This document shows positions 21,530 through 45,062 of a stretch of DNA of 45,062 nucleotides, piece after piece (position 1 is the first letter of the stretch; every line of letters begins with the position of its first letter). The position numbers and the translations under genes were made by a program. Under the pieces are notes generated by a model. The model worked only from the letters and a program-made list of their open reading frames with translations, searched no databases and was not told the DNA's origin. Origin of the DNA: a virus; the IMG/VR virus record IMGVR_UViG_3300048590_000726, positions 1-45,062 of that record. The stretch is one strand, 5' to 3'.

Positions 21530-23190
21530 TGGGGGTCCTGGCCGGCCGGTTCGAGCATCCGGACGGGCGCCCCGCCCGCGGACGGGTCGCGTTCACCTTG
21601 TCGGCGCGGGCACCGGCCGGGGATGTCGTGGTGGTGGAGGGTCCAGTCGTCGTCACCCTCGACCCCGGCGGAGGGTTCAGTGTGGAGCTGCGCGCCACCG
21701 ACGACCCCGCGTTCCAGGTCGAAGGCACCCTCACGTACCGGGTGCTGGAGATGCTGGACGCCCGCCCGCACCGTGAGCACTGGATCGTGCTGCCGGGTGC
21801 GGGGCCGTGGGATCTGGCTGTGGTGGGCGGCTGGTCGGTGGCGCCTGGCGTGGTGGTGCTGCCGGTGCCGGGTCCGCCCGGTCCCCTCGGTCCGGAGGGC
21901 CCCCGAGGTCCGCAGGGCGTGCAGGGTCCGGAGGGCCCGACCGGGCCGGAGGGCCCCCGAGGTCCGCAGGGTGCGGTGGGTCCGGAGGGCCCCCGAGGTC
22001 CGCAGGGCGAGCAGGGTCCGCCCGGTCCCGCGATCGGTGGCCTCCTCACCGCCAAGGGCGACCTGGCGGGCCGCGACGCGGCTGGGGCGGTGCGTGTCCC
22101 CGTCGGCGCGGCGGGGACGCTGCTGCACCCGGACCCTGCAGCGGCTGCGGGCCTGGTGTGGGGCGTGCCGCCGTCCGCATCGATCGGCGCGGAGTCCCCG
22201 TCCGCGGTGACAGGGCCGGAACTGGGCACCGGGTCCGGCCTCGTCCAGACCCCGACGCTGGTCCCTGGGCGGACGTACCAGGTCGGCGGGGCCGGGGTGA
22301 CCGGGATCGCGGTGGACGGGGCCGCCCTGGTGGTGTCTTCCGGGTACAGCAGTTTCGTGGCGTCCGCCGCCGTGCACACCATCGAGGCCACGGGCGGGAC
22401 GGTGCTGTCCGTCCGGGAGGTCGGTACGGTGCCCGCGCTGCTGACGGTCGGCGGGCAGGTTGAGGTGCGCCGCCGGGGCAGCAACACCGGGATCGGGGTG
22501 AACAGCCAACGGTCGCTCACCACCGGCATCAGCAACACCGGGATCGGGCGAGACGTGCAACGGTCGCTCACCACCGGCATCAGCAACACCGGGGTCGGGC
22601 TGAACGCGCAACTGTCGCTCACCACCGGCATCAGCAACACCGGGGTCGGGGTGAACGCGCAACTGTCGCTCACCACCGGCAGCAGCAACACCGGGATCGG
22701 GCGAGACGCGCAACGGTCGCTCACCACCGGCATCAGCAACACCGGGGTCGGGCTGAACAGCCAGCAGGCCCTCACCACCGGCAGCAGCAACACCGGGATC
22801 GGGCGAGACGTGCAACGGTCGCTCACCACCGGCATCAGCAACACCGGGGTCGGGGTGAACAGCCAGCAGGCCCTCACCACCGGCATCAGCAACACCGGGA
22901 TCGGGGTGAACAGCCAACTGGCCCTCACCACCGGCAGCAACAACACCGGGATCGGGGTGAACGCGCAGAACCACGCCTCGCAGGTGCCGCACGTCCGCGG
23001 CACCGTCGCCATCGGCACCGACTCCACCGGCGTCGGAGCGCACACCGACCGCGACGACACCATCGTCCTGGGCACCGACCGGCACACCCTCGTCCTGCGC
23101 GGCCCCGGCATCGAGATGCGGTCCCCCGACGGCACCCGCTGGCTCCTCACCATCACCACCGGCGGACAGATCCAGGTCGCACCCGCCTAA
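21529..23190 (+). CDS. Tail fibre with collagen-like and 17-residue repeats
   Basis: A 553-residue protein starting at ATG 21529 (TGATG junction). An N-terminal beta domain (1-110) probably attaches to the tail. Residues 115-167 are Gly-X-Y repeats rich in '[10 protein letters not shown]', predicting a collagen triple helix. After a linker, residues 318-470 are nine 17-residue units of the form SNTGxGxNxQxxLTTGx, plus a partial tenth, expected to stack as a beta-solenoid as in YadA-like heads. The C-terminal 70 residues ('[17 protein letters not shown]' onward) form a cap or receptor-binding tip. A trimeric host-recognition fibre is the likely role. Confidence 0.85.
22480..22938 (+). repeat. 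Nine tandem 51-bp coding repeats
   Basis: Nine exact-length 51-bp units encode the fibre's 17-residue repeats; a partial tenth begins at 22939. Variation is limited to a few codons that switch between alternatives (GI/GV, VN/LN/RD, SQ/AQ/VQ, RS/LS/QA/LA, final I/S) in mixed combinations, the pattern expected of unequal crossing-over or gene conversion among units. Confidence 0.9.
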
Positions 23191-32063: not shown

Positions 32064-32092
32064 ATAACTCTTTATAGCATGCTTCAGTCCAA
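32064..32092 (-). promoter_or_regulatory. Candidate internal early promoter
   Basis: On the minus strand TTGGAC (32087-32092) and AGTTAT (32064-32069) are 17 bases apart; TATAAA also occurs between them. The local AT content is far above the surroundings, and the -35 box overlaps the end of the upstream gene. A -10 match of three of six is weak. Confidence 0.35.
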
Positions 32093-33184
32093 CGGGTCGA
32101 GGAGCTGCAGTGCGAGGAGCGCCTGCTGCGGGACGACGCCGTTGCCGAGCATCTTCAGCTGCGCGGTGGCGGGCATCCCGTCGATGCCGGTCACCCACCC
32201 TTCGGGCAGGCCCATCATCCATTCCACGAATGCGGGGTTGAGGCGGTGCCGTTCGCCGCGCTGGATGGTGGGTGGTGGGGCTTCCCTGCCGGTGGCCTGC
32301 TCCCAGCGTTCGACGGCCGCTGCGTAGGGGCCGTAGTCCGCTGCTCTTCCCGCTTGCATCAGTTGCCCCTTGAGCAGCAGTTCGCCGCCCCTGTCGCCGC
32401 CGCGGTTGAGGTGGCCTCCTGCTCCGTCAGCCGCTGATGGAGTGTTGAGGAGCGCCATGTCACCCCCAGAGGTCGGACCAGATGCGGTCGGCGATGTCTC
32501 GGTAATCGGCAGGGTCTCCGCCCAGTTGCTCGGCGAGGGATTGCCGCACGACCCGTGTTCCCCAGGCGGGTTCACCTGGGAGGCAGGCTGTGCAGATGTA
32601 CACGGCTCCGTCATCGTTGCCGCAGTATTCGCAGACGGTGCTTGGCATGGTTCCTCCAGTGATCGCATGGGGTCGGATTGCAGGATCGGTTTGCCTTCGG
32701 TAATGGAGCGTGCGGCGACGGCGAGCGGGAGGCCATGATGGGTGCCGGTGCGGGCGATCACGTCCGCACGTCGCCGCAACCATTCGTCCGGGGCTTCCCT
32801 GTTGTCGTTCGTGAACGGGGTAGGTGTGGGCAGGAGGGCGACAACGCCGGGCAGGGCGTCGGCGACGCCTCGCCCGTTCCGCATCCCCGGCCCGCCGTTC
32901 GGGCCGTCGCTCGCCTTCGGCGACGGCAGGCGGGCAATGCTGTGCCACAACGACCCGGAGTTGTAGCCGTCAGCCGGTGCGCCCTTACCATCCCTAGCCT
33001 GCGGGGTTCCGAGCAACGATGAACACCCTCTCGCGGCGGTGAGGGGCGCCGGCGTCGGCAGCGGCCACAGTCCCCCACCTCGCGTCATACCCCAGGTCGG
33101 CCAAGTCCCCGCAAACAGCGCCGAGTGCTCGCAGAGCAGGCTCCCCGCCCGCGTCTCCCACACACCACGGGCACGGTTCCACAT
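32084..33184 (-). CDS. Methyltransferase companion / C-terminal part with motif X
   Basis: 366 residues from ATG 33184 (an in-frame ATG at 33220 is also possible). The start lies inside the methyltransferase gene in another frame. 'CEHSALFAGTWPTWGMTRGG' and repeated 'LPTPTP', 'LGTPQARDG', 'LNTPSAADG' segments are typical of actinobacterial proteins encoded beside C5-methyltransferases. The C-terminus has 'NPAFVEWMMGLPEGW' and 'LKMLGNGVVPQQALLAL', the motif X end of a C5-methyltransferase. The enzyme may work as two chains. A small zinc gene is nested in another frame at 32460-32648, and the stretch of this protein over it is low-complexity. Confidence 0.65.
   Translation of the reverse strand: MWNRARGVWETRAGSLLCEHSALFAGTWPTWGMTRGGGLWPLPTPAPLTAARGCSSLLGTPQARDGKGAPADGYNSGSLWHSIARLPSPKASDGPNGGPGMRNGRGVADALPGVVALLPTPTPFTNDNREAPDEWLRRRADVIARTGTHHGLPLAVAARSITEGKPILQSDPMRSLEEPCQAPSANTAATMTEPCTSAQPASQVNPPGEHGSCGNPSPSNWAETLPITETSPTASGPTSGGDMALLNTPSAADGAGGHLNRGGDRGGELLLKGQLMQAGRAADYGPYAAAVERWEQATGREAPPPTIQRGERHRLNPAFVEWMMGLPEGWVTGIDGMPATAQLKMLGNGVVPQQALLALQLLDPLD
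32460..32648 (-). CDS. Zinc-ribbon protein nested inside the methyltransferase companion ORF
   Basis: A 62-residue protein; ATG 32648 follows GGAGGAACC. 'STVCEYCGNDDGAVYICTAC' gives CxxC...CxxC, and the acidic helical tail 'QLGGDPADYRDIADRIW' follows. The ribosome site and Cys pattern make it a credible gene, although a longer ORF runs through it in a different frame. Confidence 0.65.
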   Translation of the reverse strand: MPSTVCEYCGNDDGAVYICTACLPGEPAWGTRVVRQSLAEQLGGDPADYRDIADRIWSDLWG

Positions 33185-33566
33185 CGCTATGGGCTGCCCC
33201 GGTAAGCAAACCTCGGACATTCTCGATCACCACTCTCTGAGGTCGTAACTGGTCGATTGCGTAGGCCATGTGCTCCCACAGGCCGGACCGTGTCCCGGGT
33301 TTCAGGCCGAGCCGTTTCCCCGCATGGGACAGGTCCTGGCAGGGGAACCCGCCGGTCAGGATGTCGATAGCGGGCACGGCGGCCCAGTCCACGGCGGTGA
33401 TGTCGCCGAGGTTGGGTGCGTCTGGCCATCTGGCTGCGAGGATGCGCGCCGGCCACGGGTCGATCTCGCAGTGCCACACGACGCGCCCGCCGTAGTGGGC
33501 GGCGACGGCCATGTCGAGGCCGCCGTAGCCGGAGAACAGGCTCCCGATCCGGGGCTTCTCAGGCAT
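32994..33566 (-). CDS. DNA cytosine-5 methyltransferase, catalytic part
   Basis: A 190-residue protein starting at ATG 33566. Motifs of C5-methyltransferases in order: I 'GSLFSGYGGLDMAV' (AdoMet binding), IV 'GGFPCQDLS' (catalytic Cys 76), VI 'ENVRGL' (115-120) and VIII 'APHRRERVFIVA'. It stops after motif VIII, without target-recognition and motif X regions, which appear in the overlapping ORF 32084-33184. It would methylate phage DNA, most simply to evade host restriction. Whether the two chains form one active enzyme is inference. Confidence 0.85.
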   Translation of the reverse strand: MPEKPRIGSLFSGYGGLDMAVAAHYGGRVVWHCEIDPWPARILAARWPDAPNLGDITAVDWAAVPAIDILTGGFPCQDLSHAGKRLGLKPGTRSGLWEHMAYAIDQLRPQRVVIENVRGLLTGAAHSDVEPCPWCVGDAGGEPALRALGAVCGDLADLGYDARWGTVAAADAGAPHRRERVFIVARNPAG

Positions 33567-33572
33567 CAGGCG

Positions 33573-33947
33573 TCACCGCCCCCGGCGCAGGTGCCGGACC
33601 AGGGTGCGGAACCAGTCGCCGCTGTCCGGTGCTGCGACGAGCTCCGGCGGCAGCGTCCCCGCCTGCTGCGTCGGGGTCAGCTCCCCGGCCCGCTTCGCGG
33701 CCCGGTACTTGCGGCGCAGCTCGGCCCGGTCGGCGGCGACCATCCTGACCTTCAGGTGCTGCCCGCCCCACACTCCGCACAGGTTGTTGCGGTCGCCGTA
33801 GTCGTAGCATTCCGCCGCCACGGGGCACCCCGAGCAGACTTTGACGGCCCGGCGCAGCAGGTACGGCCCGTCCGGGCCTTCAGGGAACCACAGCTCCGGG
33901 TCGTGCCCGACGCAGGCGGCCTGCGCCATCCAGGCGGTGCCGTTCAA
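33573..33947 (-). CDS. WhiB-family Fe-S transcription regulator
   Basis: A 124-residue protein; TTG 33947 overlaps the upstream stop (TTGA), with ATG 33929 as an alternative. The four Fe-S cysteines C12, C38, C41, C47 and the GVWGG turn (58-62) define the family. WhiB proteins bind sigma factor and control transcription in actinobacteria; phage copies can interfere with host WhiB function or drive phage genes. The C-terminal region after the turn is long and basic (AELRRKYRAAKRAG), suitable for DNA binding. Confidence 0.92.
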   Translation of the reverse strand: MNGTAWMAQAACVGHDPELWFPEGPDGPYLLRRAVKVCSGCPVAAECYDYGDRNNLCGVWGGQHLKVRMVAADRAELRRKYRAAKRAGELTPTQQAGTLPPELVAAPDSGDWFRTLVRHLRRGR

Positions 33948-34279
33948 CGGGCGTTGAGGCGGACGAAGGTGGCCAGGTCCATCACGACGTGCCAGCGGCC
34001 CGTGTTGGCGTCGCCGACGCCGTGGGGCTTGTGCACGACGGCGCCGTACAGCTCTGCGGCGTTGACCCGTTCGGCCTCGGCCTCCCGCAGCCACTGCTGG
34101 TAGGCGGGGGTGCGGGAGGCTTTCACCTCCAGCGCCCAGCCTTCAGGTCCGCCGATGATGTCGCCGCGGTCGTTGGCGCCGGCCAGTCCGCGCCGTTCCG
34201 CCTTCGGCCAGCCGTGTTCGCGGAGGTAGGCCACGACCGCCGTCTCGGCGGCGGTCCCGATCCGCTTGGCCCTGCTCAT
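33944..34279 (-). CDS. Holliday-junction resolvase-like nuclease
   Basis: A 111-residue protein; ATG 34279 is chosen over GTG 34288 because it forms a TGATG junction. 'GTAAETAVVAYLREHGWPKA' with 'RRGLAGANDRGDIIGGPEGW' and 'ALEVKASR' gives the E...D...E-x-K layout of PD-(D/E)XK Holliday-junction resolvases seen in actinophages. It would resolve recombination or replication intermediates before packaging. Confidence 0.8.
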   Translation of the reverse strand: MSRAKRIGTAAETAVVAYLREHGWPKAERRGLAGANDRGDIIGGPEGWALEVKASRTPAYQQWLREAEAERVNAAELYGAVVHKPHGVGDANTGRWHVVMDLATFVRLNAR

Positions 34280-34551
34280 CAGCGCCACCGCACGTCACGG
34301 GTGGCGCGCTTGCCGACGATGCCGTCCTGCAGGGCCTGGACGCCGTTGCGGTGGAACACCTTGCGGCCCTCCGCGTCCACGGACCAGCCGATGACCCTGC
34401 CTTTGACCATCCAGGACAGCAGCACGTTGACGGTGATGCCGACGGCCCTGGCGGTCTGGGCGACGGTGAACCATTCCTGCCCGTCCGGCAGGCCTTCACC
34501 GACGACGGGGCGCAGGCAGGTGGAGCCGGTGGTGGCGGTGGTGGCGGTCAT
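34279..34551 (-). CDS. Helix-turn-helix DNA-binding protein
   Basis: A 90-residue protein starting at ATG 34551 (TGATG junction with SSB). 'EWFTVAQTARAVGITVNVLL' and 'SWMVKGRVIGWSVDAEGRKV' form a MerR/excisionase-like HTH with a wing. No integrase is present, so a regulatory or replication role is more likely than excision. Confidence 0.7.
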   Translation of the reverse strand: MTATTATTGSTCLRPVVGEGLPDGQEWFTVAQTARAVGITVNVLLSWMVKGRVIGWSVDAEGRKVFHRNGVQALQDGIVGKRATRDVRWR

Positions 34552-34955: not shown

Positions 34956-35597
34956 CTACTTGTCTCCGTTCTGCTTGACGTATGCGATGAGGGCGGACAG
35001 CAGGGGCCAGGTGTCGGCGACGGGCAGGGCGAGGAACTCGTCCAGGCTGAGGCCGCCGTGCTCGCCCCGCCACTTGGAGGTGATCTGCTCCACGCTGCGG
35101 CCGACCTGCTCGGCGATCTGCTCGAACTGCTCGACAGCATCGGCGGGGGTCATGCCGGGCGGCGGGGCGGGGGGCGCTGCTGCTGCGCGGGGGGCGGCGT
35201 GGGCGGCGGCGCCGTCGTCGTCGTCGGCGCCGGTCAGGCCCAGGGCGGCGGTGAGGCTGTAGCGGCGCCCGTAGGTGATGGCGCTGCCCACGTCCTGCGC
35301 GGCCCCGCTGCAGCGGATGACGACGGGCTCGAAGGACAGCTTCTCGCCGGAGGCGTGCAGGATGGTGGTGCGCACGGCGACGCTGCCTTCGGCGACGAAG
35401 GGGAAGTCCTGCACAGCGGCGAGGCCGTGCTGGGCCAGGACGGGGCGGACCTCCTCCAGCAGCGCGGGCAGGGTGAGGTAGGTGTACCGCTTGGCCCCGG
35501 CGGACACCTTCGCGTCCTTGACGGGGTCGCGGAGCGCGCCCATCGCGGCGACCAGTGCGGCGGCCAGCCCTGTGCTGCGGCGGTCTTCATCTGTCAT
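34956..35597 (-). CDS. erf: ERF-family single-strand annealing protein
   Basis: A 213-residue protein starting at ATG 35597 behind GGGAAGAG. 'RYTYLTLPALLEEVRPVLAQ' and 'GSAITYGRRYSLTAALGLTG' followed by acidic 'ADDDDGA' are ERF hallmarks. A Pro/Ala linker then leads to a C-terminal helical region. It anneals complementary single strands in homologous recombination, acting with SSB, the Cas4-like nuclease and the resolvase. Confidence 0.88.
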   Translation of the reverse strand: MTDEDRRSTGLAAALVAAMGALRDPVKDAKVSAGAKRYTYLTLPALLEEVRPVLAQHGLAAVQDFPFVAEGSVAVRTTILHASGEKLSFEPVVIRCSGAAQDVGSAITYGRRYSLTAALGLTGADDDDGAAAHAAPRAAAAPPAPPPGMTPADAVEQFEQIAEQVGRSVEQITSKWRGEHGGLSLDEFLALPVADTWPLLSALIAYVKQNGDK

Positions 35598-36007
35598 CGC
35601 TCTTCCCTCTCTCGTGGAGCTGCTGCGTGGTGCTGCGGCGTCCATCCCGGCTGCCGCTGCGGCAGGTGCCGCTGCTCGGCGGTCTCGGACATGTCCAGGC
35701 ATTCGAAGGTGGTCACCCAGGTCGGCGGCGGGGGGCGGCGGCCCCCCTGCTCCTCCGGCAGCAGGGGCCGGGCGCCGGGGACGACGAGGTAGAAGACCTG
35801 ATCGTGCGTCCCGGTCTGGATGTAGGCGAAGCGCCGGACCAGGCCGGCGCGGATGAGGGACTGCAGGCTCGCCCGGACGGCGGGGAGCTTGCCTCCGGTG
35901 GCCTGGGCGAGGTCGTTCTGCCGCCAGCGGCGGGTGGGGTCGGCGAGCATCGCGCGGTGCACCTGCACCCTGTTCGACTCGGCCACGGCTTGACTGTACA
36001 TCAGCAT
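35594..36007 (-). CDS. Winged-helix protein, first gene of the early operon
   Basis: 137 residues from ATG 36007; an in-frame GTG at 36100 would add 31 poorly biased residues, and GTG starts near 'VQVHRAMLADP' are also possible. 'RWRQNDLAQATGGKLPAVRA' with 'SLQSLIRAGLVRRFAYIQTG' is a winged helix-turn-helix. Its position at the divergent junction suggests it may regulate the early operon or the primase gene. The C-terminal 50 residues are Pro-rich and disordered-looking. Ends with an ATGA overlap with ERF. Confidence 0.6.
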   Translation of the reverse strand: MLMYSQAVAESNRVQVHRAMLADPTRRWRQNDLAQATGGKLPAVRASLQSLIRAGLVRRFAYIQTGTHDQVFYLVVPGARPLLPEEQGGRRPPPPTWVTTFECLDMSETAEQRHLPQRQPGWTPQHHAAAPREREER

Positions 36008-36123
36008 ATTCCGTTGCACCAGGGTTTCGATGGACGTTTCTGCCGGGGTGCCCGATGTGCTGCGCCGCGCCTCCGGCCGGGGGGTAGTGTCGCAGGTCAC
36101 AGCGAGGTGCAGGAGGGGTTGCT
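36008..36123. promoter_or_regulatory. Divergent control region between early operon and primase gene
   Basis: The gap is AT-richer near 35990-36030. On the + strand TAGTGT (36085-36090) is a plausible -10 box, 33 bases before the TTG start and upstream of AGGAGGGG; the same hexamer precedes the adhesin genes. Candidate minus-strand promoter elements (TACAGT near 35996) would fall at or inside the winged-helix gene. Exact promoters are uncertain. Confidence 0.4.
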
Positions 36124-38388
36124 TTGAGCACTGCCGTGTGCGTGGGGACAGGTCTGGGCGGGTTGCTGGATGCGGTGGACATCCGCGACGAGGAGCTGCT
36201 GTCGGTGCTGTGGCGCAGGCCTGGGGGGCCTGCGCAGGGGGGGCAGCGGACGGCGGGGGCGCTGCGGCGGGCGGTGCTGCCGCAGGGGGTGGACTGCTGG
36301 GTGGGGATCAACCCGATGCGCAGGGCGGCGGCGGGTCGGGGCGGGGAGCGGGACGTGCTGCGGGTGGCGGCGCTGGTGGCGGATGTGGATGTGCGGACGG
36401 CGGGGGTGAAGGAGTCCGGGGGGGTGCCGGACTTCGAGGCGGCGCGGCTGGTGGTGCAGGACATCTCGGTGATGCTGGGCTCGCTGCCGGTGGCGGTGGT
36501 GCGGTCGGGGCACGGCCTGCAGCCGTACTGGGCGGTGGAGGAGGAGGATTCCCGCGACCTGGAGGCGATGCGGGTGCGGCTGGCGCGGTTCGCGGAGCTG
36601 GTGGTGCGGGTGGGGGCGGTGCGGGGCGGGGCCTTGGACCGGCTGCGGGACATGGCTCGGGTGTGGCGGATGCCGGGGTCGCAGAACTGCAAAGGGGTCC
36701 GTCCGTTGCCGGTGGTGCTGGAGCCGGGCGGGGGGCGCCCGTTGTCGGGGGCCGAGGTGGACGGGGCGCTGGACGCCTACGCGGTGCCGCTGCCGTCGCG
36801 GATGGGCGCGGAAGGTCCGGCGGTGGACATGGCGGCGGTGCCGTGGGCGCAGCAGGACTGCGCGTATGTGCGGGCGATGGTGCAGGGGTGGGCGTCGGAC
36901 CGGCCTGCGGCGCGGCATCCGTGGCTGGTGGGGCAGGCGATCCGGTTGGAGCTGGCGCGGCGGCACGGGTGCTTCACGCAGGCGGGGTACGAGTGGGCGC
37001 GGCGGGAGCTGGGGGCGCGTTTCGCGGCCCTGGTGGGCCGCGATCCGCGGCGGGAGGGGGAGCTGGAGCAGGCGTCGGCGTGGGCGGTGGACTGCGCGTC
37101 GCGCAAGGATGCCGCCGCGGTGGCGGCGGAGCTGGGGGGGCACGACCACGTGGGGGAGGAGGGGTTCTGGCTGCTGCGTCCGCTGCTGCAGTGGTGCCTG
37201 GAGGCGGGGGATGCGCGGTACCTGCCGCCGGACCTGCTGCTGCCGTTCCTGCTGGCGCAGGTGCGGTGCCTGGCGGGGCCGTGGCCGCAGGTGCCGCCGA
37301 TGATCGGCAGCACGGCGTCGTTGAACCTGGGCCTGGCGGTGGTGGCGGCGTCGGGGGGCGGGAAGTCGGCGTCGGCCGCGGTGATCGCGGAGGCCGGCCT
37401 GCCGCCGGTGAAGTCGGGGGGGCTGGGCACGGCGGAGGGGGTGGCGGACCTGTTCGGGTCGGTGGTGGACGGACGGATGGAGTTCACGTCCCGGTCGGTG
37501 CTGCTGGCGGTGGATGAGGTGGAGGCGCTGTTCGGGGTGGCCGACCGGCAGGGGTCGGTGATGTTCCCGACGCTGCGGACGATGCTGACGGGCGGGCCGG
37601 TGCGGATCGCGTACAGGTCCAAGCCGGTGGAGCTGCCGGCGCGGGAGTACGCGACGGCGGCGGTGCTGGCGGGGCAGCCGGGGAAGTTCCAGCCGATGGT
37701 GTCGGCGGGGGAGCTGGAGGGGGGCACGCCGCAGCGGTTCGTGTGGTTCCGTCCGCAGGGGTGGGAGGTGCCGGCGCCGCGGGGGCGGCGGGTGCTGCCG
37801 GTGCCGCCGGTGCCGGTGCGGGTGCCGGAGCAGGCGCGGCGGCACTTCCTGCTGGAGTTCCCCGAGGAGGTGCATGTGGCGGTGCAGGAGGCGTGGGGGC
37901 AGCGGTTCTCGGGGGTGGCGGCGGGGGTGGCGGCGATGGACAGCCATCGGATGCTGGCGCGGTGCAAGGTGGCGGCGCTGTTCGCGCTGGCGGAGGGCCG
38001 TTTCGAGGTGTCGGCGGCGGACTGGTCGGATTCGGGTGCGTTGATGCGCAGGTCGGATGCGGCGCTGGAGCATGTGGTGTCGGCGAGCCGGGTGGAGGCG
38101 CAGGAGCGGCTGGTGCAGATGGGCCGGTCGGACGGCCATCGGGAGTCGGCGAAGCGGGACGTGCTGCATGAGGCGGCGGTGCGGCGGGTGGCGGGGGTGG
38201 CGGCGCGGTACGTGCTGTCGCACGGGGAGTGCACGCGCAAGCAGGTGCGGCAGGCGGTGGGGCGGGACCGGGGCCTGCTGGACGAGGCGCTGGCGGATGC
38301 GGTGGAGCGGGGGGTGCTGGTGCGGCGGCAGCGGCCTCGGGGCGGTGCTGCGGGCGGGGCCGACGTGACGGTGTGGGGGCCTGCATAG
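36124..38388 (+). CDS. PrimPol (AEP) primase-helicase fusion
   Basis: A 754-residue protein with a TTG start at 36124 after AGGAGGGG. The N-terminal archaeo-eukaryotic primase domain has ADVDV (D87, D89), RSGHGLQPYW (H130) and the downstream 'LRDMARVWRMPGSQNCKG' pattern. The C-terminal ATPase has Walker A ASGGGKS (409-415) and Walker B 'LLAVDEVEALF' (D464, E465). The last 70 residues form a winged helix ('HGECTRKQVRQAVGRDRGLL'). It would prime and unwind DNA, and AEP domains can also polymerise. As no other DNA polymerase is encoded, it is the central replication enzyme here. Confidence 0.85.
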   Translation: MSTAVCVGTGLGGLLDAVDIRDEELLSVLWRRPGGPAQGGQRTAGALRRAVLPQGVDCWVGINPMRRAAAGRGGERDVLRVAALVADVDVRTAGVKESGGVPDFEAARLVVQDISVMLGSLPVAVVRSGHGLQPYWAVEEEDSRDLEAMRVRLARFAELVVRVGAVRGGALDRLRDMARVWRMPGSQNCKGVRPLPVVLEPGGGRPLSGAEVDGALDAYAVPLPSRMGAEGPAVDMAAVPWAQQDCAYVRAMVQGWASDRPAARHPWLVGQAIRLELARRHGCFTQAGYEWARRELGARFAALVGRDPRREGELEQASAWAVDCASRKDAAAVAAELGGHDHVGEEGFWLLRPLLQWCLEAGDARYLPPDLLLPFLLAQVRCLAGPWPQVPPMIGSTASLNLGLAVVAASGGGKSASAAVIAEAGLPPVKSGGLGTAEGVADLFGSVVDGRMEFTSRSVLLAVDEVEALFGVADRQGSVMFPTLRTMLTGGPVRIAYRSKPVELPAREYATAAVLAGQPGKFQPMVSAGELEGGTPQRFVWFRPQGWEVPAPRGRRVLPVPPVPVRVPEQARRHFLLEFPEEVHVAVQEAWGQRFSGVAAGVAAMDSHRMLARCKVAALFALAEGRFEVSAADWSDSGALMRRSDAALEHVVSASRVEAQERLVQMGRSDGHRESAKRDVLHEAAVRRVAGVAARYVLSHGECTRKQVRQAVGRDRGLLDEALADAVERGVLVRRQRPRGGAAGGADVTVWGPA

Positions 38389-38427: not shown

Positions 38428-38541
38428 GGGGGGGTACAAAAGTTCTACGGAGTGTGACGGCGGAGTGGGTTTGTGCGCCCTTTTCGGCCCTAGCATGGGC
38501 AACATGTGACGGAAAGTTATGTCGGGGGTTTGTACCCCCCC
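38428..38541. repeat. 13-bp perfect inverted repeat
   Basis: GGGGGGGTACAAA at 38428-38440 and its exact complement TTTGTACCCCCCC at 38529-38541, separated by 88 bases. Confidence 0.85.
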
Positions 38542-38611
38542 TTTCGTCCGTCCAGTCTCGGCCCATGCTTCGTTCTGAGGTAGGCCGATTGTCACTCTCC
38601 GTAGAACTTTT
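38438..38611. repeat. 21-bp inverted repeat, one mismatch
   Basis: Arms at 38438-38458 (core AAAAGTTCTACGGAG) and 38591-38611 (core CTCCGTAGAACTTTT) match at 20 of 21 positions, the exception being base 38453. The left arm begins within the 13-bp repeat, so the two structures compete or nest. Confidence 0.85.
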
Positions 38612-38851: not shown

Positions 38852-39910
38852 ATGACGACCACCGACCGCAGCAGCCTCGCCGCCGCCGCAGCACTCCTGG
38901 CGAAGGCCACCACGAAAGACGGCAGGCTCGACCTGCACCACCGCGACGGCGCACTGCACCTGCACGCCGCAGGCCCCGACACCCGCGCATGGATCAGCAC
39001 CGCCGCCGAAGACGGCGGCGGCCTGCACTGCAGCGTCAACGCCGACCTCCTCGCCAACCTCCTGCGGCGGCTCGACGCCGCCGAGGTGCACCTCGACCAC
39101 GGCCCCGGCGGCCTTCGCCTGCGCTGCGGCCGCGCCACCTACGACCTGCCCGCCGCACGCCCCGACGACGGAACCCCCACCCTGCCCCCCGACGGCACAG
39201 GCACCACCACCACCGTCGAAGCCCTGCGCGCCGCCACCAGCCATTGCCTGCCCGCCGCCGGCGACCCCGGCGGCGGACTGCCCGTCCTGGGAGCGTTCCT
39301 GGCCACCGCCCGCAGCGACGGCCTGCACCTGGCCGCCACCGACCGCTACCGCCTCGCCACCGCAGCAGCAGCAGGCAGCGGAACCCCCTGGCAGGCCCTG
39401 CCCTCGGCCAAGCACCTCGCCATGCTCGCCAGAGCCCTGCCCGACGGCCCCCTGCGCATCGCCCCCCTGGACCACGGAGCAGCCGTCGCCCTCATCGGCG
39501 ACGGCGCAGGAGCCGTCCTGCCCTGCCTCGGCGGGCAGTACCCGGTGGAAGCGGTCCAACGGATGCTGGGGTTCTCCTCCGGCGACGACGCCGCCGAATG
39601 CGACGCCGCCGCCCTCGCAGCAGCGGTGGACCGCTTCCGCGCAGCAGCCGGCTGGTCCTGCGGCGCCCGCATCCACGTCCACGACGGCGTCCTGCACCTG
39701 TCCGGCTCCACCAGCAGGGCCGCCGGGCGGGACGAGCTGCCCGCCGAAGGCGGCATCGACGTGGAGCTGAACGCCGAATGGCTCGCCGACGCGGTGACCC
39801 CCCTGCGCGGCGGCAAGGTCCGGCTGAGCGCCGGACCTAAAGGCCCCGTCACCATCGCCGCCCCCGGCGACGGCCCCCGCACCCTTGTCCAGCGGCTCGC
39901 CAAGCAGTAA
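38852..39910 (+). CDS. dnaN: DNA polymerase III beta sliding clamp-like protein
   Basis: A 352-residue protein starting at ATG 38852; the open frame upstream lacks a ribosome site and is poorly biased. It has the three-domain clamp length, and the second domain shows 'LPVLGAFLATARSDGLHLAA' followed by 'TDRYRLA', the DnaN signature. It would encircle DNA and tether a polymerase, probably the host replicative enzyme since the phage lacks one. Its Ala-rich, high-GC composition blurs similarity in domains 1 and 3. Confidence 0.82.
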   Translation: MTTTDRSSLAAAAALLAKATTKDGRLDLHHRDGALHLHAAGPDTRAWISTAAEDGGGLHCSVNADLLANLLRRLDAAEVHLDHGPGGLRLRCGRATYDLPAARPDDGTPTLPPDGTGTTTTVEALRAATSHCLPAAGDPGGGLPVLGAFLATARSDGLHLAATDRYRLATAAAAGSGTPWQALPSAKHLAMLARALPDGPLRIAPLDHGAAVALIGDGAGAVLPCLGGQYPVEAVQRMLGFSSGDDAAECDAAALAAAVDRFRAAAGWSCGARIHVHDGVLHLSGSTSRAAGRDELPAEGGIDVELNAEWLADAVTPLRGGKVRLSAGPKGPVTIAAPGDGPRTLVQRLAKQ

Positions 39911-39941: not shown

Positions 39942-40190
39942 ATGGCCGCCGTCCGCCCCACCTCCTGGCCCGCCGAAACCCGCAGCGAGCAGCGCAGCGA
40001 GCTGTACGACGAACTCGCCGAATTCCTCCTCCTCAGCCCCCCCGGCGCCAGTGCAGCAGTCCCCCTGCCCTTCGGCGTGCACCCCGACAGCTTCCGCAGC
40101 AACCTGCACCAGGCCATGCGCATCAGGAGCCTGCTCATCCGCACCACCCGCGTCGATGACGAGATGATCGTCACCCGGAAGTTCGGATGA
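39942..40190 (+). CDS. 82-residue protein, unknown
   Basis: ATG 39942 behind GGAAGGACC is preferred to ATG 39912. It encodes 'YDELAEFLLLSPPGASAAVP' then 'SFRSNLHQAMRIRSLLIRTT'; the end ('DDEMIVTRKFG') resembles a small HTH or beta-hairpin protein. It overlaps the Cas4-like gene by 4 bases (ATGA), suggesting a shared role in replication or recombination. Confidence 0.6.
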   Translation: MAAVRPTSWPAETRSEQRSELYDELAEFLLLSPPGASAAVPLPFGVHPDSFRSNLHQAMRIRSLLIRTTRVDDEMIVTRKFG

Positions 40191-41218
40191 GCCTGGCAGC
40201 CGCCGTCCTCGGCGGCCTGGACGACTACCAGGCCGGGCGCGCCTGGGAACCCATCGGACCTTCCGGCCACAGCACCTGCATCCGGCAGCTCGCCTACCGC
40301 TACCTCAAAGTGCCCCGCACCGACACGGTCGGCACCGCCTCCGCCGACCGCGGCACCCTGGTCCACGACGGCTTCACCCACCGCATCCGCAGCGCCCCCG
40401 ACTACGACCCCGCCGCCCTCGACGCCGACGTGCGGATCACCATCCCCGGCCTGCCGCGCACAGGCGCGGCAGACGTGGTGGACTACACCCGCCGCATCTG
40501 CTGGGACATCAAGACCACCACCGCCCGCAACTACGACTACCTGCGCCCCCGCGGCCCCCGGGACGAATGGCTCGGCCAGATCGGGCTGTACACCCTCGGC
40601 CTGGCCGAGCAGCACCCCGGACCCTGGAACGCAGGCGTCCTGCTCATCGACCTGGACACCGTCAGCGACGGCAAGCTCCGCCACCACGAATGGGTGCTGC
40701 CGGTGGATGTGGAGCAGGCGGAGTCATTGCGGGCGCGGATCATTGCGCGTCACGACACGCTGACCGCAGCCGCAGCAGCAGCCCGCGAAGGCGACCGCGC
40801 AGCAGCGGAGGCGTTCCCCCGTGAAGGCGGAGGCCCCGGCCGCTTCCCCTGCGACTGGTGCGGCTGGCTGTCCGCGTGCTGGCCCGCTGCGGACGGTCAG
40901 CGGACCCCGCAGGCCGCAGTCATTGCCGACGACCCCGACGAGATCGGCGCGTGGGCGGCGCGGTACATCGCCGCGCGCACCGCGGAAGCCGACGCCCGCG
41001 ACGCCAAGAGCGCCGCCGCGGCGTACCTGCGGGGCAACCCCGGCGCCTGGCCGGCGCCGGGGGGCGGCCAGGTGGTGGTGTCCATGACCTCCCCGCGGCA
41101 GCGCGGCGAAGAGCCCGACCCGGCCGCGATGGCGCAGGCGCTGACAGCGGCGGGCCTGCCGGTGCCGATGCGGGTGCCGCCGCCGGCGACCCCGGCGCTG
41201 CAGGTCAAGCTCCTGTGA
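40187..41218 (+). CDS. Cas4/RecB-like PD-(D/E)XK nuclease with Fe-S cluster
   Basis: A 343-residue protein starting at ATG 40187. The nuclease core shows H60, D96/D99, D107-x-K109 ('ICWDIKT') and Q131 ('GQIGLYTLGL'). Four cysteines, C31 and C222, C225, C231 ('PCDWCGWLSAC'), match the 4Fe-4S cluster of Cas4 and AddB. Phage Cas4-like nucleases resect DNA ends for recombination; no CRISPR array or other cas gene is present. Three TCATTGC motifs lie within the gene. Confidence 0.85.
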   Translation: MSLAAAVLGGLDDYQAGRAWEPIGPSGHSTCIRQLAYRYLKVPRTDTVGTASADRGTLVHDGFTHRIRSAPDYDPAALDADVRITIPGLPRTGAADVVDYTRRICWDIKTTTARNYDYLRPRGPRDEWLGQIGLYTLGLAEQHPGPWNAGVLLIDLDTVSDGKLRHHEWVLPVDVEQAESLRARIIARHDTLTAAAAAAREGDRAAAEAFPREGGGPGRFPCDWCGWLSACWPAADGQRTPQAAVIADDPDEIGAWAARYIAARTAEADARDAKSAAAAYLRGNPGAWPAPGGGQVVVSMTSPRQRGEEPDPAAMAQALTAAGLPVPMRVPPPATPALQVKLL

Positions 41219-41229
41219 CCGGCGGCGAG

Positions 41230-41265
41230 CAGGAAGGGGCGGGCTTCCAGGCCAGCCCCTTCCTG
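41230..41265. terminator. Bidirectional hairpin between convergent genes
   Basis: CAGGAAGGGGC (41230-41240) pairs with GCCCCTTCCTG (41255-41265) over a 14-base loop, between the Cas4-like gene and the convergent gene ending at 41280. Confidence 0.7.
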
Positions 41266-41279
41266 TTGCTCCCGCCCGG

Positions 41280-41570
41280 TCATTGCCGCCCGGTGCAGGA
41301 CGGGCACGGCCATTCCCACAGCTCGTCATACACCAGCGCCGTGAGCGGGTGCGGCCCCTGCACAGGCCACGGCACCCCTGTCCGATCCAGCGGCGGCAGC
41401 CGGTGCCCGGGGCAGGCGGCGCAATGGTAGGCCACCGTGGAAGCCCACCCGGGGCCGCCTGCCCCATCCGTGGCCACGATCCGCGGATCGTCCGGACAGG
41501 CGGGGCCGCCGTACAGGTAGGCGCCGCCGTCGCCGGTGCGAACCCAACCGGCAGGCAGCGGCGCGCTCAT
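41280..41570 (-). CDS. Zinc-ribbon-like small protein
   Basis: A 96-residue protein starting at ATG 41570, overlapping the upstream CAATGA stop. 'YHCAACPGHRLPPLDRTGVP' and the C-terminal 'WPCPSCTGRQ' give CxxC pairs 44 residues apart that may bind zinc. Last gene of the right-arm minus operon; ends in a TCATTGC motif. Confidence 0.6.
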   Translation of the reverse strand: MSAPLPAGWVRTGDGGAYLYGGPACPDDPRIVATDGAGGPGWASTVAYHCAACPGHRLPPLDRTGVPWPVQGPHPLTALVYDELWEWPCPSCTGRQ

Positions 41571-41956
41571 TGCGCGCCCCGCGCATGCGCCGCGACGACA
41601 TCCCAGAACGCATCGTCGTCGGCGGTGATCAGGTAGTGGCCGTGCGCCACGGAGATGACAGCATCGCCGATGGCGTCAACGTCGTAGTCATTGCTGTCGG
41701 CGTCGCCGGCGTCGATGACGGCAGCGATGCACGCCAGCGCGTCGCCGCGGGTGCGGTACGCGTGGTCCCGCAGCCATGACCGGATCGCATCCGTGAGCGC
41801 GTCGGCCGCGTCGCCGGTCCATCCGGCGGCGTCGTCCAAGGCGAACTGCACCCCGGTGAGATCGAGCTCCTCCAGCGGGACCGGGGAGTCCCATCCAACG
41901 GCGAGGTAGGCTGCGGCGTCGATACGGTCGGCGTGGGTGCGGGTGTCGGTGATCAT
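41567..41956 (-). CDS. Acidic 129-residue protein, unknown
   Basis: ATG 41956 is selected by AGGAGCAGC just before it. It begins 'MITDTRTHADRIDAAAYLAV' and is strongly acidic ('VIDAGDADSNDYDVDAIGDA'). Its first codons are duplicated upstream (GCAATGATCACCGACACCCG occurs twice, 39 bases apart), carrying TCATTGC motifs. No family recognised; acidic small proteins can be DNA mimics, which is speculation. Confidence 0.6.
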   Translation of the reverse strand: MITDTRTHADRIDAAAYLAVGWDSPVPLEELDLTGVQFALDDAAGWTGDAADALTDAIRSWLRDHAYRTRGDALACIAAVIDAGDADSNDYDVDAIGDAVISVAHGHYLITADDDAFWDVVAAHARGAQ

Positions 41957-42084
41957 TGCTGCTCCTGTCTGGTCATTGCGGGTGTCGGTGATCATTGCGG
42001 GTGTCGGGCTGCAGGGGCCATCGCGCCCCGCACCAACCCCCGGCCCCCGGGCCGGACAGGCCCGGAGGTCGGGGGGGTTCGGTG
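41957..42084. promoter_or_regulatory. Intergenic repeats and strong hairpin
   Basis: Contains two TCATTGC motifs (41973, 41992), with a third at 41953 at the adjacent start codon, plus a hairpin of arms 42037-42053 and 42059-42075 (17 positions, one G-T and one mismatch, loop GGACA). The hairpin is likely the terminator or attenuator after the gene ending at 42085; the repeats may be operators for the downstream gene. Confidence 0.6.
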
Positions 42085-42375
42085 TCAGCGGCACCACAAG
42101 GCGTGCCAGCGAGGCACGCCCCCCCGCGGGCCGGCCGCTGCCAGGTAGTCGGCCATCGCCGCGGCCTCGCTGCAGGTGAGTCCGCCGCGCGCCAGCTCGG
42201 AGGCCAGTTCGGCAGGATCGGTGATTGCGCCAGTACTCACGAATCGGTAGCCGGCGGAGGCCTGGCCGCTGTAGGCCCAGGATGCGAGGGTGCGCGCCAC
42301 CCCGTCAGGGATGCTGCGGCCGGCGGCGGCCGCCGCAGCGATGGCGGCGGCCACTGCCCGCTCATCGCCGCTCAT
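42085..42375 (-). CDS. 96-residue helical protein, unknown
   Basis: ATG 42375 overlaps the previous stop (ATGA). Ala-rich helices ('RAVAAAIAAAAAAGRSIPDG') precede 'LTCSEAAAMADYLAAAG' and end 'WHALWCR'. Similar in style to small actinophage proteins with 'C-S-E-A-E-A-L-A-D' motifs. Followed by a strong hairpin. Confidence 0.55.
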   Translation of the reverse strand: MSGDERAVAAAIAAAAAAGRSIPDGVARTLASWAYSGQASAGYRFVSTGAITDPAELASELARGGLTCSEAAAMADYLAAAGPRGGVPRWHALWCR

Positions 42376-42611
42376 GCGGCGCTCATCGCAATGACATGCC
42401 CGCGGCCGTTGGTGGTGATCGTGATCGCAGCGCCGATACGGTGATTGGGCACGGCGTACGCCGTGGCCGAGTCCGGCGCGGTCGGCAGCGCGATGAGGCT
42501 GCCGTCGGCGGCGAGGATGGTGAGCGAGTACCGGGGGTTCCCGTTGCGGCTGCTGCGCATGCGGGTGGCCGCGGCCAGGGTGCCGGCGATCATCGCGTGC
42601 TTCGTTTCCAT
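42372..42611 (-). CDS. 79-residue beta-rich protein, OB-like
   Basis: ATG 42611 lies 8 bases after GGAAGGAG. 'GTLAAATRMRSSRNGNPRYS', 'LTILAADGSLIALPTAPDS' and 'YAVPNHRIGAAITITTNGRG' read like the strands of an OB-fold found in other actinophage small proteins. A promoter/operator candidate lies directly upstream. Confidence 0.55.
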   Translation of the reverse strand: METKHAMIAGTLAAATRMRSSRNGNPRYSLTILAADGSLIALPTAPDSATAYAVPNHRIGAAITITTNGRGHVIAMSAA

Positions 42612-42632
42612 GATGATTACTCCTTCCGTTTG

Positions 42633-42679
42633 CATGCTACTAGAACTGTAGCATGAGTGGTAGTGGTAGTGGAAGTCAA
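42633..42679 (-). promoter_or_regulatory. Promoter with overlapping operator-like palindrome
   Basis: On the minus strand TTGACT (42674-42679) is followed after 18 bases by CATGCT (42650-42655). Over it lies a perfect 8-bp inverted repeat CATGCTAC-TAGAACT-GTAGCATG (42633-42655). The tract between is a short direct repeat (CCACTACCACTACCACT). AT-rich for this genome. A repressor or autoregulator could bind here. Confidence 0.5.
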
Positions 42680-43557
42680 GGGCGATGAAAAACCGCAGGC
42701 CTTACGAATCCGCTGCGATCACTTTTTGCGCGGCCGAGCGCGGCGAGGGCTACGACCGTTCCCGGGGCGTCGCCCGTGCGGTCATCAGTAGATACCCCGT
42801 CGGTGAGCGGCAGCAGGCCCTGCCAATGCAGGCCGTCGGCGCAAGCCTGCCGGACAGTAGCCTTGGACGCGTCGAAGACCACCGACACGTTGCGCCCTTC
42901 ACCGATCATCGCGGCGATATCGGCGACGCTCATCCGCTCGTGCGCGGAGTACGTGAGGTGCAGCCCGACGGCCGCCGCCCCCTGCCGGTGGCGCGGCGGC
43001 CATTTGGTGTAGTCGTACGACCGGACGCCGCCGGCGGCGTAGTGCTGCAGCATGTCGGGGACGACGAGCTCCCAGCGGATATCAGCATTGACGTTCCAGC
43101 GCATCCCGATAGCGCCGTGCCGCGCACGCGCGGCGGCAAGCTCCGCCGCCAGGATGACGCCGGCCTCGCGCGGATGCTCGGCGAGGAACCGAGTCCGCGC
43201 GCGGCGCGCGGACTCCACACTTGCAAGCCCGCCTTTGCCTGCGGTGGCCAGGCAGGCCGCGCGGCACCCTGCCGTGCTCATTGGGCAAGCGTTGGCCCCG
43301 ACTATCCCGTGAGTCATTGCCGGCAGCAGGGTCAGGCCGTATGTCGGCAGGTGACTCTTCGCCAGCTTGGGTTGCGCTGCGGGGGGCGTGAGCAACGGCA
43401 CGGCGCACGCCGCGTAGCCCAGCGAGGCGCGGTGCCGCGCCTGCACAGCGCGGCTACGGGCGGTCATTGCGCGCGGGTCTTCCGCGGCGGCATGCTCGCG
43501 CATGCCGTCCGCCATCGGCAGCAACAGGCGCTCCAAGCGGGTCAGTGATAGTGACAT
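42676..43557 (-). CDS. GP88-family phage protein
   Basis: A 293-residue protein starting at ATG 43557 after AAGGTGC. The core 'YGLTLLPAMTHGIVGANACP', 'MSTAGCRAACLATAGKGGLA', 'RWNVNADIRWELVV', 'YDYTKWPPRH' and 'VGLHLTYSAHERM' matches the actinophage Gene product 88 family (PF17338). These are widespread, but their biochemical role is not established. Two TCATTGC motifs lie in its 5' half. The stop overlaps the promoter of the next gene. Confidence 0.8.
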   Translation of the reverse strand: MSLSLTRLERLLLPMADGMREHAAAEDPRAMTARSRAVQARHRASLGYAACAVPLLTPPAAQPKLAKSHLPTYGLTLLPAMTHGIVGANACPMSTAGCRAACLATAGKGGLASVESARRARTRFLAEHPREAGVILAAELAAARARHGAIGMRWNVNADIRWELVVPDMLQHYAAGGVRSYDYTKWPPRHRQGAAAVGLHLTYSAHERMSVADIAAMIGEGRNVSVVFDASKATVRQACADGLHWQGLLPLTDGVSTDDRTGDAPGTVVALAALGRAKSDRSGFVRPAVFHRP

Positions 43558-43607
43558 GAAAGCACCTTAGCATGGATAGCACAGGTGTTGCAACCCGGCG
43601 AGGCCAG

Positions 43608-43970
43608 TCATTGCGAGGCCCCAGTCATTGCAGGGATCGGATCGGGGACCACGGGGCGGCGGAGTACAGCTAGCTGCGCCATCGAGCCGGGCCGCTCCAC
43701 CAGGGTGGGGTACACCCCGGCCCAGAACTCGTCGGCGGACCACGCCCACGCCTCGTCGATGAACGCCCGGTCCAGGGTGCGGCCCCACAGGTTGGAGGTG
43801 GCGACGGTCCGCCACACGCTCCCGGACTCCCAGATGATCTGGGAGTCCGGGAGCTGCTTCGTGGTGGCCATCTCGAGCTTGTGCGCCCACGGCACCCACA
43901 GGGCCTGGTGGGACCGGGCGATGAGGACGGTGTTCGCGGAGTGCACGAGCTCGATGGGCTCGGGCGCCAC
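43608..43970 (-). CDS. Terminase-ATPase-like fragment
   Basis: A 120-residue ORF with a GTG start at 43970, right after an in-frame stop. 'SNTVLIARSHQALWVPWAHK', 'WRTVATSNLWGRTLDRAFI' and 'DEAWAWSADEFWAGVYPTL' recall the middle of large-terminase ATPase domains of the Terminase_1 type, including a Walker B-like 'RAFIDEAWAW'. Walker A and the nuclease domain are absent. It is not a copy of this phage's own terminase. It is either a remnant of another terminase or a small protein derived from one. The similarity is recalled, not computed. Confidence 0.5.
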   Translation of the reverse strand: MAPEPIELVHSANTVLIARSHQALWVPWAHKLEMATTKQLPDSQIIWESGSVWRTVATSNLWGRTLDRAFIDEAWAWSADEFWAGVYPTLVERPGSMAQLAVLRRPVVPDPIPAMTGASQ

Positions 43971-44278: not shown

Positions 44279-44735
44279 GGCCGGCCGCCTCACACTCAAG
44301 CTCGGAAAGAGTCTCCAGACACTCACTCATCGGTCGCATCCACGTACCAGCTAGCTCATCGGTCGCATCCACGTACCAGACGGCAGGCAGGAGGCGGCCG
44401 GCCACAGCATCCCACCGGTCCCAACGGGCCGCCTCGCACAGGCGGCCCGGGACACAACCCACGATGAGACCTACATCCGCGTAGGCGTCATAGGCCGACC
44501 ATGAACCGTCACCCCACACGATGACGGACGGCGACGGATCATCCTGGCATGCGGCAGTGACGGCCGCATCCGTGGGACGGGGCGTCGAAAGTGGGTGCGC
44601 CGTGGCGTGTGCGGCTAGTCGTGCCGTGATGGTGGTGGCGCATGTGTCGGCGTGTTGTTGTTGTGTGTAGGTGTGGAGTGTGGTTGCTGTGAGTGCGGTT
44701 GCGGCCGCGCTCAGTATCGCTAGCGTTCTGTGCAT
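44268..44735 (-). CDS. Secreted or membrane-anchored protein, unknown
   Basis: A 155-residue protein; ATG 44735 is 6 bases after the -10 box, implying leaderless translation. The N-terminus 'MHRTLAILSAAATALTATTL' is a signal peptide or anchor. The mature part is acidic, with 'VIVWGDGSWSAYDAYADVGL' and two or three cysteine pairs. Its C-terminus has been altered by a tandem duplication that shifts the reading frame. First gene of the right-arm operon; an exported early product is plausible. Confidence 0.6.
   Translation of the reverse strand: MHRTLAILSAAATALTATTLHTYTQQQHADTCATTITARLAAHATAHPLSTPRPTDAAVTAACQDDPSPSVIVWGDGSWSAYDAYADVGLIVGCVPGRLCEAARWDRWDAVAGRLLPAVWYVDATDELAGTWMRPMSECLETLSELECEAAGHGA
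44326..44379. repeat. Tandem 25-bp direct repeat, 29-base period
   Basis: Copies at 44326-44350 and 44355-44379 (shared core CTCATCGGTCGCATCC). The period is not a multiple of three, so the second copy is read in another frame. The same 16-base core occurs at 31907-31922, at the start region of an early gene. Confidence 0.85.
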
Positions 44736-44741
44736 GCATCC

Positions 44742-44769
44742 ATCCTAGCGTGTTGACTGTGCTTGTCAA
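44742..44769 (-). promoter_or_regulatory. Near-consensus leaderless promoter with TTGAC dyad
   Basis: Minus-strand TTGACA (44764-44769), 16-base spacer, TAGGAT (44742-44747), then six bases to ATG 44735. Transcription should begin at or next to the A of the start codon. The -35 region is half of an inverted repeat TTGAC-N7-GTCAA (44753-44769), a possible operator. The best promoter in the window. Confidence 0.75.
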
Positions 44770-44909: not shown

Positions 44910-45062
44910 ATGTGGGGGGGTGGGGTGGTGGGTTCCGCGCCGGGGGTTCGCCGGCGCCCTGCAGGGCGCCCTGCGCGCACCTGGACCGCCCCCCCCCGCG
45001 TTGGCCGCTGCGCCCCGGCCGTGCCGGGCGCCCCCAGCCAGGGGGCGCCGTCGTGCGCTGCG
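44910..45062. repeat. Terminal direct repeat, right copy
   Basis: Second copy of bases 1-153 with two substitutions, at 45036 and 45050. The first disrupts the inner pair of the hairpin present in the left copy. Confidence 0.85.

What the first reader, a model, noticed from the sequence alone, without database searches (positions are those of the whole stretch)
40724..43631. A dense cluster of the heptamer TCATTGC confined to about 3 kb
Thirteen + strand copies and one inverted copy occur within 2.9 kb. With about 70% GC, roughly 0.06 would be expected per strand in this length. I saw none in the other 42 kb. The motif is embedded in at least two frames of the Cas4-like gene (Ser-Leu, Ile-Ala codons) and lies in genes on the opposite strand, at stop/start junctions and between genes, so selection acts on DNA, not protein. 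It forces rare codons such as ATT and TTG. Near pairs are 16-20 bases apart, about two helical turns. Consistent with iterons, a partition-like site, operators of a phage regulator, or an orienting recognition sequence; 13 of 14 copies share one orientation.
Basis: partly seen in the sequence, partly recalled or inferred. Interest (0 to 1): 0.78.

Follow-up and report, generated by a model that had tools for sequence, protein, structure and literature searches.

The report
Strand-oriented DNA site array in phage
An environmental phage carries 14 exact copies of one 7-letter DNA word, almost all pointing the same way and packed into 3 kb of its 45 kb genome, kept there by selection on the DNA rather than on the proteins; it is probably a set of landing sites for one DNA-binding protein, but which protein and what for is not shown.

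Summary
TCATTGC occurs 13 times on + and once on −, all at 40724-43631, and nowhere else in the record. A fourth-order Markov background expects 0.013 in that length. Selection acts on the DNA. At positions where the encoded protein permits the motif on the + strand, 12 of 15 carry it inside the cluster; at permissive positions outside, 0 of 50 (25 of them + strand) do. Protein-preserving codon shuffles never reach the observed 13. The extended site is RRTCATTGC.

Copies keep the same DNA orientation in the rightward Cas4-like gene, in the leftward genes, and across a very strong convergent terminator. The polarity therefore follows the DNA strand, not transcription. The phage is a complete circular-map virus of an unknown host. 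Its structural-gene relatives lack the cluster, and so do the PrimPol and GP88 phages examined. An iteron origin is unlikely to be here: relatives with the same PrimPol place inverted repeats directly behind the primase gene, and this phage does too (38428-38611).

Best reading: strand-polar recognition sites for one sequence-specific protein. They resemble cluster A stoperators most in layout, and also the one-strand nick motifs of phage tf. Neither family's defining features are all met. The mechanism stays open.

The parts
40724..40730 (+). TCATTGC copy 1 (in Cas4-like gene, Ser-Leu-Arg)
40740..40746 (+). TCATTGC copy 2 (in Cas4-like gene, Ile-Ile-Ala)
40920..40926 (+). TCATTGC copy 3 (in Cas4-like gene, Val-Ile-Ala)
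41280..41286 (+). TCATTGC copy 4 (last codon and stop of leftward ORF 41280-41570; foot of the convergent terminator hairpin)
41567..41573 (+). TCATTGC copy 5 (stop/start overlap of two leftward genes)
41688..41694 (+). TCATTGC copy 6 (leftward gene, Ser-Asn-Asp)
41953..41959 (+). TCATTGC copy 7 (start codon context of leftward gene)
41973..41979 (+). TCATTGC copy 8
41992..41998 (+). TCATTGC copy 9 (inside a 22-bp repeat shared with copy 7, 39 bp apart)
42388..42394 (-). only inverted copy
43314..43320 (+). TCATTGC copy 11 (in GP88 gene, Ala-Met-Thr, at an indel boundary relative to phage Goose)
43464..43470 (+). TCATTGC copy 12 (in GP88 gene, Ala-Met-Thr, the Met-Thr differing from Goose)
43608..43614 (+). 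TCATTGC copy 13 (last codon and stop of leftward gene)
43625..43631 (+). TCATTGC copy 14 (Ala-Met-Thr)
42220..42229 (+). one-mismatch near-copy GGTGATTGCG
40187..41218 (+). Cas4-like PD-(D/E)XK nuclease gene holding copies 1-3
41215..41285 (.). very stable hairpin between convergent genes, probable bidirectional terminator
   Evidence: (-52.7 kcal/mol, z -6.6)
42676..43557 (-). GP88-family gene (Pfam PF17338), holding copies 11 and 12
42601..42700 (.). most AT-rich 100 bp of the genome (53% AT, genome mean 28.6%), between the two blocks of sites
44742..44769 (-). leftward sigma-70-like promoter of the right-end genes; no motif copy here
36136..38388 (+). PrimPol (DNA polymerase/primase) gene
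38428..38611 (.). nested inverted repeats directly downstream of the PrimPol gene, putative replication origin

Best explanation
The cluster is an array of about 14 asymmetric recognition sites, RRTCATTGC, for one sequence-specific protein. The protein is probably phage-encoded and reads the site with a fixed polarity on the DNA. The sites are kept by selection on the double helix, not on protein or codon usage (shown). They form two blocks, 40724-41998 (9 sites) and 43314-43631 (4 sites), between the replication genes and the leftward promoter at the right end of the map (shown). I infer that a protein bound at these sites acts as a polar roadblock or docking point. The most likely function is a stoperator-like one, damping leftward transcription that would run from the right-end promoter into the replication genes. 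The binding protein is not identified; candidates are the MerR-like (34279-34551), winged-helix (35594-36100) and WhiB (33573-33947) proteins. This last step is inference.
For: Count and confinement. Synonymous-position test: 12 of 15 permissive + positions carry it inside the cluster, 0 of 50 outside; the three unused ones all lie in the gap between the blocks. Protein-preserving codon shuffles give a mean of 0.57 (genome codon usage) and 2.4 (within gene) against 13 observed, with no shuffle out of 5,000 reaching it. Genes on + and genes on - carry the same DNA orientation. Flank consensus RR at -2 and -1 in 13 of 14 each; 17.2 bits in all, more than needed to find 14 sites in 90 kb of strand (12.6 bits). 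Cluster A phage Goose, with a homologous GP88 gene near its right end, carries the stoperator core ATGTCAAG 17:0 in one orientation over its leftward arm, eight within 3 kb at the right end around its GP88 gene. The oriented stoperator mechanism is published (PMC9283540).
Against: No copy at the leftward promoter 44769-44742, where L5-type phages also have repressor sites. No homolog of the Goose repressor gp71 in the window, and no integrase found in the proteins tested. Three copies lie in the rightward Cas4-like gene, beyond a -52.7 kcal/mol convergent hairpin, so their orientation cannot follow gene transcription. About 11 of 14 copies lie inside coding sequence, whereas most Goose sites lie between genes. 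No binding protein has been shown.
Confidence: 0.38

Rival explanations
1. The motif is the recognition sequence of a strand-specific nicking activity. [quoted passage not shown]
For: Phage tf has 14 sites of a strict 9-mer (TACTRTGMC), all on one strand, unevenly distributed, in a lytic ~46 kb phage with convergent gene sets (PMC3517423); in its relative Rembedalsseter the breaks map exactly to a one-strand 9-mer, and in that phage group the motifs lie mostly within genes (PMC11780129). Here: 14 strict sites, 13 on one strand whatever the gene direction, convergent gene sets.
Against: tf sites spread over most of the genome, while here they sit in 6.5% of it. Neighbouring sites 16-20 nt apart would release short oligonucleotides. 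One copy is inverted. No nickase is identified.
Confidence: 0.2
2. Replication sites: iterons of an origin, primase start sites or a polar replication-fork barrier next to the replication module.
For: The PrimPol, clamp-like and Cas4-like genes lie immediately to the left. The most AT-rich 100 bp of the genome lies between the two blocks. The sites keep DNA polarity.
Against: Four phages with the same PrimPol family have inverted repeat clusters directly behind the primase gene, and this phage has inverted repeats there too (38428-38611). Spacing is irregular (16 to 926 bp) and the sites sit inside coding sequence. The structure model of PrimPol was too poor to look for a site-binding domain (pLDDT 39).
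Confidence: 0.2
3. An RNA-level signal: GCAAUGA repeated in the leftward transcript, read by an RNA-binding protein or a small RNA.
For: Ten of 14 copies lie in leftward genes as GCAATGA in the sense strand.
Against: Copies 1-3 lie in the opposite, rightward gene beyond a strong hairpin, yet have the same DNA orientation; no Rfam family in the window.
Confidence: 0.07
4. Remnant of an expanding dispersed repeat, such as the TGTCATTGCGAGG-type repeats seen in other contigs, or local tandem duplication.
For: Arrays of GTCATTGCGAGG-type repeats occur in other viral contigs (L044, L047, L095, L137, L138, L143). Copies 7-9 and 13-14 lie in short local duplications.
Against: Flanks outside RR and a weak G/C preference are unrelated between most copies, and copies sit in frame in several genes without breaking them. 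Those contigs were pre-selected for the heptamer.
Confidence: 0.05

Closest known systems
Cluster A mycobacteriophage stoperators (L5, TipsytheTRex, Goose)
   Same: Asymmetric, strict, many copies in one orientation, densest near the right end around a GP88-family gene.
   Different: 13-bp site with a different sequence, mostly between genes, spread over the whole arm, also at promoters, read by gp71-type repressors. Here the site is 7-9 bp, mostly inside genes, confined to 2.9 kb, absent from the promoter, and no gp71 homolog is found.
Single-strand nick motifs of phage tf / Rembedalsseter (TACTRTGMC, WACTRTGAC)
   Same: About 13-14 strict 9-bp sites on one DNA strand, uneven distribution, ~45 kb phage.
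   Different: Different sequence, different phage group, and not confined to one 3-kb stretch. No nick has been shown here.
Inverted repeat clusters behind the primase gene of PrimPol actinophages (BetterKatz, TPA4, Anaya, KiSi)
   Same: Short repeated site near the primase gene.
   Different: Those lie directly behind the primase gene in inverted pairs in non-coding DNA; this phage has such repeats at 38428-38611, separate from the cluster.

Membership tests
Cluster A stoperators | asymmetric site, one orientation relative to transcription | tested here: not met
   Asymmetric and 13:1 oriented, but the three copies in the rightward gene keep the DNA orientation rather than the transcription orientation
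Cluster A stoperators | same site also serves as operator at the early promoter | tested here: not met
   No copy or good near-copy at 44769-44742
Cluster A stoperators | gp71-type repressor encoded | tested here: not met
   tblastn of Goose gp71 gives no meaningful match (best E 1.8)
Cluster A stoperators | sites located mainly between genes | tested here: not met
   About 11 of 14 inside coding sequence, 3 overlapping stop codons
Phage nick sites (tf/T5/phiKMV type) | sites on one DNA strand regardless of gene direction | tested here: met
   13 of 14 on +, in genes of both directions
Phage nick sites (tf/T5/phiKMV type) | single-strand interruptions at the sites in virion DNA | not testable with these tools
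   needs native DNA
Phage nick sites (tf/T5/phiKMV type) | one of the known nick motifs (TACTRTGMC, CGACNNNNNCCTA, T5 type) | tested here: not met
   the motif here is RRTCATTGC
Replication iterons | located in a non-coding origin near the initiator gene, regular spacing | tested here: not met
   Sites in coding DNA with irregular spacing; an origin-like repeat region lies elsewhere

The most novel reading that the evidence does not exclude
A regional, strand-polar site array unlike described phage systems: for example a phage-encoded polar fork barrier, or nicking zone, restricted to one 3-kb stretch, into which every + strand position that the proteins allow in the two blocks has been filled with the site.
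Probability: 0.2. Interest if true: 0.75.

Novelty: new variant of a known kind. Interest (0 to 1): 0.55.

Why it matters
The selection on a short DNA word is unusually clear here. Inside the two blocks, all + strand positions that the proteins permit carry it; outside the cluster, none do. It gives a direct, cheap test case for two open questions: how monomeric proteins use oriented sites away from promoters, and what one-strand nick motifs in phage DNA are for.

Tried and rejected
Close relatives by DNA in INPHARED: none. Relatives in IMG/VR by capsid: about 80 loci; the five compared in detail share structural genes (and in one case ERF) only; 9 and then 42 records searched, none with a cluster. 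GP88 relatives: the environmental loci examined have no TCATTGC cluster. Host or prophage in GTDB genomes by GP88 and by capsid: nothing. Scan of viral contigs for triple TCATTGC arrays: apart from the near-identical contig, mostly AT-rich chance hits, tandem repeats, or GTCATTGCGAGG-type dispersed repeats. Rfam: no match. Literature search for the heptamer together with 'phage': no paper. Helical phasing at 10.5 bp: vector length 0.31, not striking. PrimPol structure prediction from a single sequence: too poor to use. Protein-repeat or codon-bias origin: rejected.

Full report
Observation. TCATTGC occurs 14 times in the 45,062-base window, 13 on the + strand and one on the −, all between 40724 and 43631. 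Expectation for that stretch, both strands, falls from 0.17 with a first-order to 0.013 with a fourth-order Markov background trained on the rest of the genome. In a scan of heptamers occurring at least four times, with a second-order background, it is the most clustered one in a 3-kb window. The bases before it are purines at −2 and −1 in 13 of 14 copies each, so the site reads RRTCATTGC. Only a few one-mismatch relatives exist in the region, such as GGTGATTGCG at 42220.

Source. The record is an IMG/VR virus contig. Its first 153 bases recur at its end, and a second contig (G001) reads through the joint, so the map is complete and circular at about 44.9 kb. The two contigs differ by one base in the 5.7 kb shared before the end overlap, at 39212, outside the cluster. 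The genes are those of a tailed phage: terminase, portal, capsid, tape measure, PrimPol, a beta-clamp-like protein, Cas4-like nuclease, ERF, SSB, WhiB, C5 methyltransferase, RNA ligase. No integrase or cluster A repressor was found among the proteins tested.

Selection on DNA. The copies fall in all reading frames and both coding directions. For each place where the encoded amino acids would allow the motif, I asked whether it is there. Inside the cluster 12 of 15 + strand and 1 of 3 − strand positions carry it; outside, 0 of 50. The three unused + positions (42383, 42590, 42906) read TCATCGC and all lie in the gap between the two blocks. Within the blocks every permitted + position is used. 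Resampling codons while keeping the proteins gives on average 0.57 copies, or 2.4 when codons are only permuted within each gene, against 13 observed; none of 5,000 shuffles reached it in either model. Flank similarity beyond the site is weak except for two local duplications, so I infer that most copies arose independently.

Anatomy. Rightward genes (PrimPol, clamp, Cas4-like) end at 41218 and leftward genes run from 44735 to 41280. The convergent junction is a hairpin of −52.7 kcal/mol (z −6.6). Three copies lie on its rightward-gene side, in the Cas4-like gene, with the same DNA orientation as those on the leftward side. Polarity therefore follows the DNA strand. The leftward promoter at 44769-44742 has no copy. 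The most AT-rich 100 bp of the genome (42601-42700) lies between the blocks.

Origin hypothesis. Four phages with the same PrimPol family (BetterKatz, TPA4, Anaya, KiSi) have inverted clusters of short repeats directly downstream of the primase gene. The window has nested inverted repeats at the same place, 38428-38611. That is the better origin candidate, so iterons are an unlikely reading of TCATTGC. That these repeats are origins is itself inference from position and form.

Comparison with stoperators. Cluster A phage Goose has a homologous GP88 gene near its right end. Its stoperator core ATGTCAAG is 17:0 oriented over the leftward arm, with eight copies in 3 kb at the right end. The layout is strikingly similar. 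But orientation tied to transcription, an operator at the promoter, a gp71 repressor and an intergenic location are all unmet here. It may work like a stoperator array; it is not a member of that family on these tests.

Comparison with nick motifs. Phage tf has 14 strict 9-mers on one strand, each a real single-strand break (PMC3517423); Rembedalsseter has 13 (PMC11780129). One-strand polarity independent of genes is met here. Breaks cannot be tested without DNA, and the confinement and the 16-20 bp pairs speak against it.

Conservation. Nine and then 42 capsid relatives lack the cluster. The five compared in detail share structural genes with the window, plus ERF in one case. Environmental GP88 relatives lack it too.

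Verdict. Shown: a real, strongly selected, strand-polar site array. Inferred: one sequence-specific reader protein. Not resolved: which protein, and whether the sites stop polymerase, position a nick or serve replication.

Noticed in passing
38428-38611: Nested inverted repeats (21-nt arms 95% and 13-nt arms 100% complementary) directly behind the PrimPol gene, matching the place of inverted repeat clusters in four PrimPol actinophages; putative origin.
   Followed up: partly
43818-43854: Perfect 18-bp inverted repeat with a one-base centre inside the leftward gene 43608-43970.
   Followed up: no
44326-44379: Exact 25-bp direct repeat at 29-bp spacing near the start of the right-end operon.
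   Followed up: no
32084-33566: C5 cytosine methyltransferase in two overlapping reading frames, like the split pair gp79/gp80 in phage Goose and the annotated pair in Dylan.
   Followed up: partly
22479-22967: Tandem repeats of about 51 bp in the tail-fibre-like gene.
   Followed up: no
43407-43495: ARAGORN calls a tRNA-Cys on the + strand, antisense inside the GP88 gene and containing motif copy 12; probably spurious.
   Followed up: no
L064 311-3047: Another viral contig (60% GC) has 11 one-orientation TCATTGC copies in two groups, often followed by TCGCG, with TTATTGC variants; a separate site array worth a look.
   Followed up: partly
44910-45062 / 1-153: End overlap is exact for 126 bases, then two mismatches; looks like an assembly overlap of a circular map with a strain variant rather than proof of terminal repeats.
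   Followed up: partly
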